This document shows, one piece after another, positions 22,504 through 25,714 of a stretch of DNA of 64,000 nucleotides. How positions within the stretch are numbered: the stretch's first letter is position 1; each line of letters opens with the position of its first letter. The stretch comes from Pseudovibrio brasiliensis (GTDB lineage Bacteria > Pseudomonadota > Alphaproteobacteria > Rhizobiales > Stappiaceae). The stretch spans positions 3,638,341 through 3,702,340 of the forward strand of contig NZ_CP074126.1 in assembly GCF_018282095.1 (NCBI RefSeq), given 5' to 3'. The position numbers and the translations under genes were made by a program. The notes under the pieces were generated by a model. That model had not been told where the DNA came from and did not search any database. It saw nothing but the letters and a program-made list of their open reading frames with translations.

Positions 22504-23415
22504 ATGCCAGGCCGTTCTTTAGATTGGGACAAGCTGCGAATTTTTCATGCAGCAGCGCAGGCAGGAAGCTTTACCCACGCAGGCGAAGCTCTCAACATGA
22601 GCCAGTCGGCTGTCAGCCGTCAGGTGAGTGCCCTTGAAGCTGAGCTGGGTGTCCCCCTCTTCCACCGTCATGCGCGAGGACTGATCCCGACAGAACAGGG
22701 CGAGCTCCTTTACAGAACCGCCCGTGAAGTTCTGCTAAAACTGGAGACCGTTCAGTCCCGCCTGACAGACAGCAAGGAAAAGCCGAGCGGCACGCTCCGT
22801 GTCACCACCACTGTAGGTCTCGGCTCAACCTGGCTTACAGCTCGAGTGAACGAGTTCGTGGATCTTTATCCGGACATGCGTCTGGAAATCATCTGTATGG
22901 ATGATGAGCTGGATCTGGGCATGCGTGAGGCCGATGTGGCCATTCGCCTGCGCCAGCCAACCCAGCCGGACCTTATCCAGCGCAAGCTCTTCACTGTGCA
23001 CTTCCACGTCTACGCATCACCGAAATACATCGAGCGCTATGGCAGCCCAAGCACCATTGACGATCTGGACCATCACCGCCTGATCACTATCGGCGACAAC
23101 ATGGCCTCCTATCTGCGCGCCATGAACTGGCTGGCAACCGCTGGCCTGCCAAACGGTGAGCGTCGTGACGTCTCCCTGCGCGTGAACAACCTCTCTGGCA
23201 TCAAGAAGGCAGTTCAGACCGGCGTAGGCATCGCGATCCTGCCGGACTACATGGTTGAGCCGGGAGCAGGTATCAAACGCGTCATGTCCGTCACGCAGGA
23301 AGAACTGCCAAGCTTCGACACTTACTTCGTGTATCCGTCCGAACTGAAGAACACTGCTCGCGTGACCGCATTCAGAGACTTCCTCGTCTCCTACGCAGAA
23401 CGCTGGACTCACTAG
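22504..23415 (+). CDS. LysR-family transcriptional regulator
   Basis: This 303-residue protein has an N-terminal winged helix (residues 6-65, DKLRIFHAAAQAGSFTHAGE then SQSAVSRQVSALE) and a periplasmic-binding-protein-like effector domain (residues 95-295). GGGGAAAG is a strong ribosome site eight bases before ATG 22504. It lies just 27 bases after trxB, as in many Hyphomicrobiales, so it may be read through from trxB and may respond to redox state or to a small effector; the effector is not visible. A strong terminator follows at 23531. Confidence 0.93.
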   Translation: MPGRSLDWDKLRIFHAAAQAGSFTHAGEALNMSQSAVSRQVSALEAELGVPLFHRHARGLIPTEQGELLYRTAREVLLKLETVQSRLTDSKEKPSGTLRVTTTVGLGSTWLTARVNEFVDLYPDMRLEIICMDDELDLGMREADVAIRLRQPTQPDLIQRKLFTVHFHVYASPKYIERYGSPSTIDDLDHHRLITIGDNMASYLRAMNWLATAGLPNGERRDVSLRVNNLSGIKKAVQTGVGIAILPDYMVEPGAGIKRVMSVTQEELPSFDTYFVYPSELKNTARVTAFRDFLVSYAERWTH

Positions 23416-23530
23416 TTCAAAACGCAGTTCAGGCGCCGCAAAAGAACTGATTTGGCTTGATTAGCCTCCTCAGTGGAATCAACCAGAAGTTTTGCACCGC
23501 AAAATAAAAAATATTTCTGATCTCTTTTGA

Positions 23531-23560
23531 AGCCTCTCAAGCAACATGAGAGGCTTTTTT
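23531..23560 (+). terminator. Intrinsic terminator of the trxB-lysR unit
   Basis: AGCCTCTCA (23531-23539) pairs with TGAGAGGCT (23546-23554), followed by TTTTTT. Confidence 0.88.
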
Positions 23561-23692
23561 GAGGCCTGCGCATCCCGAAATGACAATATCTTACGCAGAG
23601 TTAGCTTTATGATAGTTGTCAGATCCTGCAAGGAAGTTCCGAGCGCCTCAAGCTCTTCACAAAATGCATAGCTGCAATGCAAAAATTAAGGA

Positions 23693-23721
23693 TTGCTGTT
23701 TCGGCGCTGCACTGCATATAT
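23693..23721 (+). promoter_or_regulatory. Predicted promoter of the candidate small RNA
   Basis: TTGCTG (23693-23698), a 17-base spacer and ATATAT (23716-23721). Transcription would start near 23728. Confidence 0.45.
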
Positions 23722-23727
23722 ACACCT

Positions 23728-23870
23728 GCTGTTGATCAGTTGCTGCCACACCTCTCCTCCCAGTGGCTCCAACATTCGATCAACTGTTCCCCTCTGGAAG
23801 GTGATTGCACCCATTAGGTGCTTTATCATTCATCACTTCTAAACCGGACCGCATGGTCCGGTTTTTTTTT
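23728..23870 (+). ncRNA. Candidate trans-acting small RNA with an anti-Shine-Dalgarno loop
   Basis: About 140 bases without an ORF, framed by a promoter-like pair and a perfect terminator. GTTGATC (23731-23737) pairs with GATCAAC (23778-23784). Inside it GCCAC (23745-23749) pairs with GTGGC (23763-23767), leaving the pyrimidine loop ACCTCTCCTCCCA, complementary to ribosome-binding sites. A second CU-rich stretch, GTTCCCCTCTGG, is single-stranded. A second hairpin has GCACC/GGTGC (23807-23811 and 23817-23821), with GTGAT/ATCAC outside it. The layout recalls the anti-SD sRNAs of alphaproteobacteria (alpha-r14/alpha-r15 style), which repress mRNAs for transporters through base pairing. Family membership is an inference; transcription is unproven. 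Confidence 0.6.
23841..23870 (+). terminator. Terminator of the candidate small RNA
   Basis: AACCGGACC and GGTCCGGTT form a nine-base perfect stem with a GCAT loop and a run of nine or more T. Confidence 0.92.
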
Positions 23871-24361
23871 GCCAAATCGCTGAAGTGACCAAGGGGCTTC
23901 CTTAGGTTTTTAGCCAGAAAAATCTTCCTAAGCCCACCATGCCTCAACCCACTTAAAGCCAGTTCCAAGCCTAATCAGCTGTTCTCTATGTGGTTTTTGA
24001 GAAATGTGGAGGCTCGAAAAGTACCGCTCCACCAGCACCGAAATCACACTGCCCAACAACAAAGCAAGCCCGCTCACATTTTGGGCAAACTAAAAAATCA
24101 ACTATCTCAGATGCACGCAGAGACATGCGGATTCAACAGGCTATTGCGCAGCCAGACTAAGGGAAAACCCATTAGATTCGAGGTATTTCCAAACTATCAA
24201 AACTAGTAATTCCTGCAAAATACACTTGAATTAACTATAAATTTCCTAGGTAAATCTTCAAACAGTGAAATTTCACCACCCCTAATCAGCGAAATTACAA
24301 ATCACCTTGCATCCTTTACTTATCGAATCATACCTATTGGCAAATATCCGAGGTAGTGGAT

Positions 24362-24505
24362 GTGAATGACCTGAGAAAAGCATTTTACACTCTGGTTGCC
24401 TGCGCACTTTTCGCAATCTATGGCGAAATCTCCCACGCCATCAGCGAAGCCGACAAGGCAGAGCGTATGAGCACCCAAATCACTTTGCACATTCCGGCAG
24501 AATAA
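24362..24505 (+). CDS. Candidate 47-residue secreted or membrane protein
   Basis: The frame runs from GTG 24362 to TAA 24503-24505. GAGGT lies about seven bases ahead. The product has a short basic start (NDLRKAF), a hydrophobic stretch (YTLVACALFAIYG) ending near SHA, then a polar tail of about 25 residues, a signal-peptide-like or anchored design. A 9-base stem AAAAGCGGC/GCCGCTTTT (24504-24551) begins at its stop codon. An alternative GTG start is at 24356. No family is recognised. The gene sits alone between the small RNA and msrP. It could be a chance frame. Confidence 0.42.
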   Translation: MNDLRKAFYTLVACALFAIYGEISHAISEADKAERMSTQITLHIPAE

Positions 24506-24739: not shown

Positions 24740-25714
24740 TTACTTGTAGAGGTCCTGCCCTTGCAGATCTTTGTAAAGGTGCGCCACCTGCTCTGCGTAG
24801 CCGTTGAACAGCTGTGTCGGCACACGTTCATCCGTTCCCAGCAAACGCTCCGTTGCTTGAGACCAACGCGCATGCGGCACTTCAGGGTTCACATTCGCCC
24901 AGAAGCCATACTCGCTCGGGCCAATCTTTTCCCAGAAGCTGACTGGACGCTCATCAGTGAAGGTGATCTTCACGATGGACTTGATGGACTTGAAGCCATA
25001 CTTCCACGGCATCACCAGACGGATCGGCGCGCCATACTGCTTCAGCAGCGGCTTGCCATAGATACCGGTCGCAACAAACGCCAGATCGTTCATCGCTTCA
25101 TCCATGGTCACACCTTCAACGTAAGGCCATGGATACCAGAACTGACGCTGACCACTGGCCACGTCGGAATCTTCAAAGGTCTCAAAGCGAATGTACTTGG
25201 CACCGTTCTGAGGCCCAGCGTACTTCACCAGCTCCGCCAGCGGGAAACCAGTCCACGGCACAGCCATCGCCCACGCTTCCACGCAGCGGTGACGGTACAA
25301 ACGCTCCTGCAACGGCATCTTGCGCACCAGATCATCAAAATCGATGGTCTGCGGATTGTCGACAAGACCATCAATGGTGATCGCCCAAGGGCGGATCTTC
25401 AGCGCCTGCGCGGCACCAGAAATGCGCTTGTGAGAGCCAAACTCATAGAAGTTGTTATAGACCGAAGTCACGCTCTCCGGCGTAATCGCGCGCTTGAGCG
25501 TAAAGTCAGGGTTCTGCTTGGCCGGGTAAAGGTCAAGCGTCGGATCTTTACCCTCTTGAGCAAACACACTGCTCACAAGGCCACCACCGCCAGCTGCCAG
25601 ACCAAGGCCTACGGCACCCAAGCCTTTCATAAACCTGCGCCGGTTGAAGAACACATCCTCAGGTGTCGCTTCTCTTTCCGGAATAATCCATTCAGGCCTA
25701 TGAATAATGTTCAT
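24740..25714 (-). CDS. msrP: Protein-methionine-sulfoxide reductase, catalytic molybdoenzyme subunit
   Basis: This 324-residue periplasmic molybdenum enzyme (YedY/MsrP) repairs oxidised methionine in envelope proteins. A twin-arginine signal (NRRRFMKG, residues 24-31) is followed by a glycine-rich hydrophobic stretch and an AQ cleavage region near residue 52. The molybdenum-ligating cysteine is Cys144 in YRHRCVEAWAM. The rest is the sulfite-oxidase fold with WPYVEGV and MPWKYGFKS. It needs molybdopterin; moaD and moaE lie at the far end of the window. The haem membrane partner MsrQ normally follows msrP but is not found within the neighbouring genes. GGGAG lies eight bases before the ATG. Confidence 0.95.
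   Translation of the reverse strand: MNIIHRPEWIIPEREATPEDVFFNRRRFMKGLGAVGLGLAAGGGGLVSSVFAQEGKDPTLDLYPAKQNPDFTLKRAITPESVTSVYNNFYEFGSHKRISGAAQALKIRPWAITIDGLVDNPQTIDFDDLVRKMPLQERLYRHRCVEAWAMAVPWTGFPLAELVKYAGPQNGAKYIRFETFEDSDVASGQRQFWYPWPYVEGVTMDEAMNDLAFVATGIYGKPLLKQYGAPIRLVMPWKYGFKSIKSIVKITFTDERPVSFWEKIGPSEYGFWANVNPEVPHARWSQATERLLGTDERVPTQLFNGYAEQVAHLYKDLQGQDLYK

What the first reader, a model, noticed from the sequence alone, without database searches (positions are those of the whole stretch)
23693..23870. Candidate small RNA with an anti-Shine-Dalgarno loop
Seen: a gene-free 140-base stretch with a promoter-like pair (TTGCTG, 17 bases, ATATAT), a closing GTTGATC/GATCAAC stem around a GCCAC/GTGGC hairpin whose 13-base loop is CU-rich (CTCTCCTCCC), a second single-stranded CCCCTCTGG, a second hairpin and a perfect nine-base terminator with a long T-run. 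Known: several alphaproteobacterial regulators (alpha-r14 and alpha-r15 style) expose CU-rich loops to block ribosome sites. Inference: this is a trans-acting sRNA, perhaps a member or relative of those groups.
Basis: partly seen in the sequence, partly recalled or inferred. Interest (0 to 1): 0.75.

Follow-up and report, generated by a model that had tools for sequence, protein, structure and literature searches.

The report
AbcR-type small RNA beside lysR
This stretch of a marine bacterium's genome most likely encodes a small regulatory RNA of the known AbcR kind, which in related soil bacteria dampens nutrient uptake by blocking ribosome sites; it is a new member of a known kind rather than a new system.

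Summary
Window 23728-23870 folds far better than its shuffles (z -6.07). Among 26 aligned copies, 14 of 28 consensus pairs show compensatory changes. The element is best read as an ortholog of the AbcR (alpha-r15, RF02345) sRNAs. It lies behind an LsrB/VtlR-type lysR (trxB - lysR - sRNA - msrP), carries both AbcR anti-Shine-Dalgarno motifs (CUCCUCCC, UUCCCCUC), and has an exact LsrB box at the published distance from the predicted start. A covariance model built from it finds 86 of 87 family genomes and, in 16 named loci, all 14 copies that Rfam accepts as ar15. Rfam itself does not accept the window copy (31 against 40 bits), so membership is claimed by descent. Only one copy was found in the host genome, unlike Rhizobiaceae and Brucellaceae. 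Expression and targets are untested; a target test favours ABC solute-binding mRNAs only weakly. Alpha-r14 membership, a SorX relation and a coding role are disfavoured. Verdict: real, new member of a known kind, moderate interest.

The parts
23727..23870 (+). predicted sRNA, about 144 nt (AbcR ortholog); start inferred from promoter and LsrB-box spacing, end from the terminator
   Evidence: 139.4 bits with model R1 (the model was built partly from this copy)
23666..23678 (+). LsrB/VtlR-type box GCATAGCTGCAAT, exact match to GCAT-N3-TG-N3-T, at -61 to -49 of the predicted start 23727
   Evidence: consensus and spacing from PMC8844928 section 5; exact in 19 of 28 copies, the window's included; conserved block 23666-23685. 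The pattern alone is not rare (17 in the window, 13.15 expected), so the weight rests on position and conservation
23693..23698 (+). -35-like hexamer TTGCTG (alternative frame: ATTGCT 23692-23697 with CATATA 23715-23720)
   Evidence: not listed by the consensus scan
23716..23721 (+). -10-like hexamer ATATAT within the conserved block TGCACTGCATATATA
23731..23784 (+). closing stem GTTGATC (23731-23737) / GATCAAC (23778-23784)
   Evidence: helix 1: changes on both sides at 5 of 9 pairs
23745..23767 (+). inner hairpin GCCAC/GTGGC with 13-base loop 23750-23762
   Evidence: helix 2: changes on both sides at 5 of 6 pairs
23754..23761 (+). aSD1 CUCCUCCC, predicted unpaired (mean probability 1.00)
   Evidence: its core UCCUCCC in 28 of 28 copies; motif as in PMC8844928 section 8
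23787..23794 (+). aSD2 UUCCCCUC, predicted mostly unpaired (mean probability 0.84)
   Evidence: in 26 of 28 copies, exceptions L016 and L034; motif as in PMC8844928 section 8
23807..23821 (+). second hairpin GCACC/GGTGC
   Evidence: not in the alignment consensus, so no covariation test
23841..23870 (+). intrinsic terminator, 10-pair stem and T-run
   Evidence: helix 4: changes on both sides at 4 of 8 pairs
22504..23415 (+). lysR, LsrB/VtlR ortholog, likely activator of the sRNA
   Evidence: 57% identical over 298 residues to the lysR beside tandem ar15 copies in Sinorhizobium shofinae, L062
21514..22476 (+). trxB, thioredoxin reductase, conserved upstream neighbour
   Evidence: TIGR01292 414.9 bits over cut-off 343.45
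24740..25714 (-). msrP, methionine sulfoxide reductase catalytic subunit, conserved downstream neighbour
   Evidence: NF003767 420.1 bits over cut-off 207

Best explanation
Window 23727-23870 is the AbcR (alpha-r15) sRNA gene of a Pseudovibrio-type genome, in a single copy, and an ortholog by descent of the AbcR1 type of Sinorhizobium and Agrobacterium. The LysR regulator encoded just upstream (LsrB/VtlR ortholog) most likely binds the box at 23666-23678 and activates transcription from about 23727. The RNA ends at the terminator at 23870 and is probably bound by Hfq. It exposes CUCCUCCC in its first loop and UUCCCCUC in the linker, pairs through these with ribosome-binding sites of transporter and metabolic mRNAs, and blocks their translation. 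Shown here: sequence, structure with covariation, locus, box, copy number, conservation and presence of hfq. Inferred from the known AbcR RNAs: expression, LsrB control, Hfq binding, targets and direction of regulation.
For: Fold z -6.07. Covariation: 14 of 28 pairs with changes on both sides; 0 of 500 shuffles reach the observed covariation score, percentage paired or number of such pairs; slid structures pair in 23-49% of cells against 95.3%. Best Rfam match is ar15, E 2.4e-4 in 801 bases and 4.3e-4 in the whole genome. aSD1 and aSD2 match the motifs dissected in S. meliloti. LsrB box exact and at the published spacing. In the 28 loci (window's own included) the lysR ortholog is upstream in 28, trxB was seen in 27 and msrP in 27. 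Model R1 finds 86 of 87 family genomes at E<=1e-3 (63 of the 64 that gave no sequence to the model) and 136 of 397 order genomes at E<=1e-6. In 16 named loci R1 recovers all 14 copies that Rfam accepts as ar15; 13 of these 16 loci hold the lysR ortholog. Hfq gene present.
Against: Rfam's curated cut-off for ar15 is not reached (31 against 40 bits), nor by any of the 16 loci. The Sinorhizobium and Ensifer copies score only 27-38 bits with R1. Three of the 16 named loci (L099 with two accepted copies, L040, L056) show no lysR ortholog within the stretch held, and 50 of 129 copies in the 119 named loci lack it within 1.2 kb, 12 of these having less than 1.2 kb of DNA upstream. One copy was found, whereas PMC3712013 says that alpha-r15 sRNAs always occur in several copies in Rhizobiaceae and Brucellaceae. 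The pattern test for aSD2-complementary ribosome sites is not specific: 29 places against 9 for the reversed pattern, but a scrambled SD-like pattern gave 45 against 12. The duplex test is weak (one-sided p 0.019 for aSD2, 0.12 for aSD1; with shuffle correction 0.030 and 0.60). One covariation measure, further pair types, does not exceed shuffles (27 against 27.8). The promoter is not listed by the consensus scan. No transcript data.
Confidence: 0.9

Rival explanations
1. It belongs to the alpha-r14 (NfeR1-type) anti-SD sRNAs rather than AbcR.
For: ar14 scores almost as high, 30 bits, and the CU-rich loop is shared.
Against: 30 bits is about half of ar14's cut-off of 58.8. The trxB-lysR locus, the UUCCCCUC linker motif and the LsrB box are those of AbcR, and R1 recovers accepted ar15 copies.
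Confidence: 0.03
2. It is an unrelated sRNA that acquired anti-SD loops by convergence and only works like AbcR.
For: CU-rich anti-SD loops occur in several sRNA families (PMC3927594 passages); the Rfam score is below the cut-off.
Against: The same place behind trxB-lysR in Stappiaceae, Kaistia, Chelatococcus, Nitratireductor and Sinorhizobium loci; nearly invariant linker; intermediates such as Nitratireductor L038 match both Rfam ar15 (44.1 bits, over the cut-off) and R1 (42.9 bits).
Confidence: 0.04
3. It is a 3'-UTR product or an attenuator belonging to lysR rather than an independent gene.
For: It begins 311 bases downstream of lysR on the same strand.
Against: A terminator-like hairpin lies between (23530-23556, read; not listed by the scan); a promoter block and regulator box are conserved directly upstream; in relative G012 three other ORFs separate lysR and the sRNA, yet the box stays with the sRNA.
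Confidence: 0.04
4. The stretch encodes a small protein.
For: ORFs of 46 and 49 codons cross it on the same strand, and ORFs of 27 and 21 codons begin inside it.
Against: The two longer ORFs begin upstream of the predicted transcript start; conservation follows base pairs and loops, and the alignment has many gaps that are not multiples of three.
Confidence: 0.01

Closest known systems
AbcR1/AbcR2 (alpha-r15, Rfam RF02345) of Sinorhizobium meliloti
   Same: Place beside lsrB; 5' hairpin and terminator; aSD1 CUCCUCCC in the 5' loop and aSD2 UUCCCCUC between the first two stem-loops; LsrB box at -61 to -49 of abcR1 (PMC8844928 sections 5 and 8; PMC3712013 passages).
   Different: One copy found instead of a tandem; about 144 nt, with stems diverged so far that the Rfam model scores 31 bits; msrP downstream instead of the ArsR-type gene SMc01226.
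AbcR1 of Agrobacterium tumefaciens under VtlR
   Same: VtlR directly activates abcR1 there (PMC7486931 abstract, outline and section 10); an orthologous regulator is encoded upstream here.
   Different: Control by the LysR protein is only inferred here.
alpha-r14 (RF02344, NfeR1 type)
   Same: CU-rich anti-SD loop.
   Different: About half of the cut-off score; the lsrB-type locus and the UUCCCCUC linker are AbcR features.
SorX (RF02784) of Rhodobacter sphaeroides
   Same: One relative, L032, scores 31.9 bits, cut-off 46.6; SorX also dampens a transporter, PotA (PMC9438474 passages).
   Different: The match begins behind the anti-SD motifs and covers only the second hairpin and the terminator; SorX is cut from the 3' end of an OmpR-type gene. 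Judged a chance resemblance.

Membership tests
AbcR / alpha-r15 | anti-SD motif UCCUCCC exposed in the 5' hairpin loop | tested here: met
   23754-23761, unpaired probability 1.00; UCCUCCC in 28 of 28 copies
AbcR / alpha-r15 | second anti-SD motif UUCCCCUC between first and second stem-loops | tested here: met
   23787-23794, unpaired 0.84; 26 of 28 copies
AbcR / alpha-r15 | three-hairpin fold ending in an intrinsic terminator | tested here: met
   covariation supports the 5' hairpin and the terminator, the second hairpin is not in the consensus
AbcR / alpha-r15 | locus beside the LsrB/VtlR-type lysR (as for S. meliloti AbcR1/2) | tested here: met
AbcR / alpha-r15 | LsrB/VtlR box upstream of the promoter (AbcR1 type) | tested here: met
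   23666-23678 exact; 19 of 28 copies exact
AbcR / alpha-r15 | score at or above the Rfam RF02345 gathering cut-off (a detection threshold, not a biological feature of the RNA) | tested here: not met
   31 against 40 bits; therefore claimed as an ortholog by locus, motifs, structure and profile link, not as an accepted RF02345 hit
AbcR / alpha-r15 | linked by a profile to accepted family copies | tested here: met
   R1 recovers 14 of 14 Rfam-accepted copies in 16 of the 119 named loci, E 1.7e-5 or better
AbcR / alpha-r15 | several copies per genome (stated for Rhizobiaceae and Brucellaceae only) | tested here: not met
   one copy found in the host genome; the statement does not cover this family
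AbcR / alpha-r15 | represses ABC-transporter mRNAs by pairing at ribosome sites | tested here: inconclusive
   27 solute-binding-protein starts against 30 dehydrogenase starts: one-sided p 0.019 for aSD2, 0.12 for aSD1; pattern test not specific
AbcR / alpha-r15 | expression and Hfq dependence | not testable with these tools
   only the presence of an hfq gene was seen
alpha-r14 (RF02344) | gathering score 58.8 bits | tested here: not met
   30 bits
[quoted passage not shown]
   neighbour is a LysR-type gene and a promoter block lies directly upstream; SorX origin

The most novel reading that the evidence does not exclude
Stappiaceae keep the ancestral, single-copy form of the AbcR circuit inside a redox cluster (trxB - lsrB - abcR - msrP), so that thiol or methionine-sulfoxide stress sensed by the LysR protein throttles nutrient uptake through one RNA; the tandem AbcR1/AbcR2 of rhizobia would then be a later duplication with split control.
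Probability: 0.4. Interest if true: 0.45.

Novelty: new member of a known kind. Interest (0 to 1): 0.3.

Why it matters
It extends a well-studied regulator of nutrient uptake and host interaction to a mainly marine family (habitat recalled). Rfam's cut-off was reached by none of the 17 Stappiaceae loci scanned (13, 4). No paper in the held library has both AbcR and Pseudovibrio, or both AbcR and Labrenzia. A one-copy genome is a cleaner place to study AbcR function than rhizobia, where two copies overlap. The conserved trxB and msrP neighbours, together with the report that LsrB transduces the cell's redox state (PMC8844928 abstract), suggest a testable link between redox state and nutrient uptake.

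Tried and rejected
Alpha-r14 membership: about half the cut-off, and the locus is that of AbcR. SorX homology, raised by L032: the alignment covers only the second hairpin and the terminator, the SorX parent gene is of another type, and no paper in the library holds both SorX and AbcR. A second AbcR copy in the same genome: none found; next best 23.3 bits, with 150 of 1214 first-look candidates scored; eight weak places, seven of them R1 places, gave only two sub-threshold leucine-leader matches in Rfam. Rfam ar15 run over whole genomes at E<=10 rang in 12 of 14 control genomes, over the cut-off in none, so low-scoring matches mean little. Small protein: rejected. Pattern search for aSD2 sites before ATG: not specific (read). 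Duplex test of 27 solute-binding-protein starts against 30 dehydrogenase starts (the best 30 of 45): weak support only; start codons were chosen by my own rule and accessibility was ignored. E. coli-type promoter scan: does not list the promoter. The LsrB pattern by itself is not rare in the window. One family genome, G060, has trxB and lysR but no sRNA match behind lysR, so the gene can be lost.

Rows dropped: of 30 loci L007-L036, L035 and L036 (E 0.196 and 0.29; none of the three neighbour genes) were left out. Of the 28 kept, which include the window's own copy L007, L008 (100% identical to the window over the query) and L011 (96%, very close to L010) were left out of alignment A1; several rows were trimmed at the 5' end, and L020 and L023 have incomplete terminators in A1. 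More than half of the 28 (16) are Pseudovibrio, so conservation counts are weighted towards one genus. One search used 16 of the 28 loci.

Full report
What is there. The 143-base stretch 23728-23870 folds to -50.1 kcal/mol against -29.6 for shuffles, z -6.07, 0 of 200 as good. The two CU-rich motifs are predicted to be open: CUCCUCCC (23754-23761) with mean unpaired probability 1.00 and UUCCCCUC (23787-23794) with 0.84. The gene-free gap between lysR and msrP is about 1.3 kb.

Related sequences. In 41 genomes, the 183-base query gave clear matches (E 1.1e-11 or better) in all 16 of the genus, the own genome included, and E 8.3e-7 or better in 8 of the 9 other family genomes; the ninth, G020, gave only 0.13 but proved to have the locus. 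Of 16 genomes from other families of the order, three (G034, G036, G037) gave matches of E 0.0075 or better. Two contigs of the genus have the same lengths as named records of Pseudovibrio stylochi and Pseudovibrio axinellae, so the window is most likely from Pseudovibrio, family Stappiaceae (inference; taxonomy). An alignment of 26 copies, the window's included (A1), gives a consensus of 28 pairs. Counted on 24 distinct rows, 95.3% of cells pair, 14 pairs show changes on both sides and the covariation score is 0.342 against 0.193 in shuffles, with 0 of 500 as high. Sliding the partners by 1-3 columns drops pairing to 23-49%. One measure, the number of further pair types, does not exceed the shuffles (27 against 27.8). 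Shuffles do not keep relatedness, so the slid control counts for more. Support is strong for the closing stem, the inner hairpin and the terminator. The small helix around the linker shows no compensatory change (four of its five pairs are broken in one row each), and the second hairpin is not in the consensus.

Upstream region. In an alignment of 28 copies over 23546-23735, only two blocks are strongly conserved (identical in at least 25 of 28): 23666-23685, 10 of 20 positions, and 23706-23725, 13 of 20; other 20-base blocks have 0 or 1. The first holds GCATAGCTGCAAT, an exact match to the LsrB consensus GCAT-N3-TG-N3-T, which PMC8844928 (section 5 read) places at -61 to -49 of the S. meliloti abcR1 promoter. 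The box is exact in 19 of 28 copies. The second block is the -10 region. The consensus promoter scan does not list this promoter.

Locus. The upstream gene is a LysR regulator and the one before it trxB; downstream, on the other strand, is msrP. In the 28 loci the lysR ortholog is present upstream in 28 (26 in the flanks, two more in the wider stretches), trxB was seen in 27 and msrP in 27. In G012 three other ORFs separate lysR and the sRNA, but the box stays with the sRNA. Of the 50 copies without that lysR, 12 have less than 1.2 kb of DNA upstream and 24 have the box all the same. Examples with the lysR are tandem copies in Sinorhizobium shofinae, Sinorhizobium fredii and Ensifer adhaerens, and one copy in Nitratireductor indicus, where trxB, lysR, sRNA and msrP stand in the same order as in the window.

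Family. Rfam's best match is ar15 (RF02345), 31 bits, below its cut-off of 40; ar14 gives 30 against 58.8. No Rfam family reaches its cut-off anywhere in the window. Of 16 loci scanned, five (L007, which is the window's own copy, L012, L024, L026, L032) match ar15 at E 0.1 or better, and none reaches the cut-off. A covariance model built from A1 (R1) scores the Sinorhizobium and Ensifer copies with 27-38 bits. In 16 named loci it recovers all 14 copies that Rfam accepts as ar15, and in addition copies in Roseibium, Pseudovibrio, Kaistia and Chelatococcus that Rfam does not accept; three further R1 matches, of 17-19 bits, are on the opposite strand over the same places. Thirteen of the 16 loci hold the lysR ortholog; L099, L040 and L056 do not within the stretch held. 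Together with the two anti-SD motifs dissected in S. meliloti (PMC8844928 section 8 read) and the LsrB box, this makes the element an AbcR ortholog. It is not an accepted RF02345 hit, and I claim membership by descent only.

Distribution and copy number. R1 finds 86 of 87 genomes of the family at E<=1e-3; 23 of these had given a sequence to the model, so 63 of the 64 others match (two of the 63, G006 and G002, are identical or very close to rows in the model). All 86 best matches score 73 bits or more, and only G092 and G102 have a second copy of that strength, in tandem; further second matches are of 35 bits or less. Both copies in G092 carry the LsrB box. G060 has trxB and lysR but no sRNA behind them. 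In the order, 136 of 397 genomes match at E<=1e-6, with filters that lose weak matches and family members among the 397. In the host genome one copy was found, 139.4 bits, the next place scoring 23.3 (150 of 1214 candidates scored). PMC3712013 (passages read) says that alpha-r15 sRNAs always occur in several copies in Rhizobiaceae and Brucellaceae; by these searches Stappiaceae are mostly single-copy.

How it most likely works. By analogy with S. meliloti and A. tumefaciens (PMC8844928 abstract and sections 5 and 8; PMC7486931 abstract, outline and section 10), the LysR protein binds the box and activates the sRNA, and the sRNA pairs through either anti-SD motif with ribosome sites of transporter mRNAs. 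Hfq is encoded in the genome. My target test is only weakly positive: at 27 starts of solute-binding proteins (PF00496 and PF13458) the aSD2 stretch pairs better than at 30 short-chain dehydrogenase starts (the best 30 of 45), one-sided p 0.019; aSD1 gives 0.12, and with shuffled-stretch correction the values are 0.030 and 0.60. With several measures tried, this is suggestive at most. The pattern test was not specific.

Literature. I read the named sections of PMC8844928 and PMC7486931 and their abstracts, passages of PMC3712013, PMC9438474, PMC6238624 and PMC3927594, and only listings for the rest. No paper in the held library has both AbcR and Pseudovibrio, or both AbcR and Labrenzia. Most subscription journals are not in it, and the original alpha-r15 survey was not read.

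Verdict. It is an ordinary but well-supported new member of a known sRNA kind, below the standard model's cut-off in the Stappiaceae loci scanned, with a single-copy state and a redox gene neighbourhood that make it useful to study.

Noticed in passing
23530-23560: A 10-pair terminator-like hairpin after lysR with a short T-run; its TGAGAGGC arm also contains GAGAGG, complementary to part of the sRNA's first loop. Probably just the lysR terminator.
   Followed up: no
24356-24505: Small ORF of 49 codons on the + strand in the lysR-msrP gap with a hydrophobic N-terminal stretch; not tested for conservation.
   Followed up: no
L310 and L314 (G060): One family genome keeps trxB and lysR but has no sRNA match behind lysR: an apparent natural loss that could be used for comparison.
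   Followed up: partly
L315 2230-2706 (G092): Tandem duplicate of the sRNA, each copy with its own exact LsrB box and with GUUCCCUC instead of GUUCCCCUC in the linker.
   Followed up: partly
L312 3567-8116 (G012): Three ORFs, one of them another LysR (31% identical), lie between the lsrB-type gene and the sRNA, whose box is kept.
   Followed up: yes
L016 (G009): Linker motif changed to GUUCCCCAAUUGAA, so aSD2 is altered while aSD1 is kept.
   Followed up: no
L159 1503-1616 and L160 1618-1685 (host genome, near C1:2292824 and C1:3138439): Sub-threshold leucine-leader matches (34.1 and 31.6 bits against a cut-off of 50).
   Followed up: no
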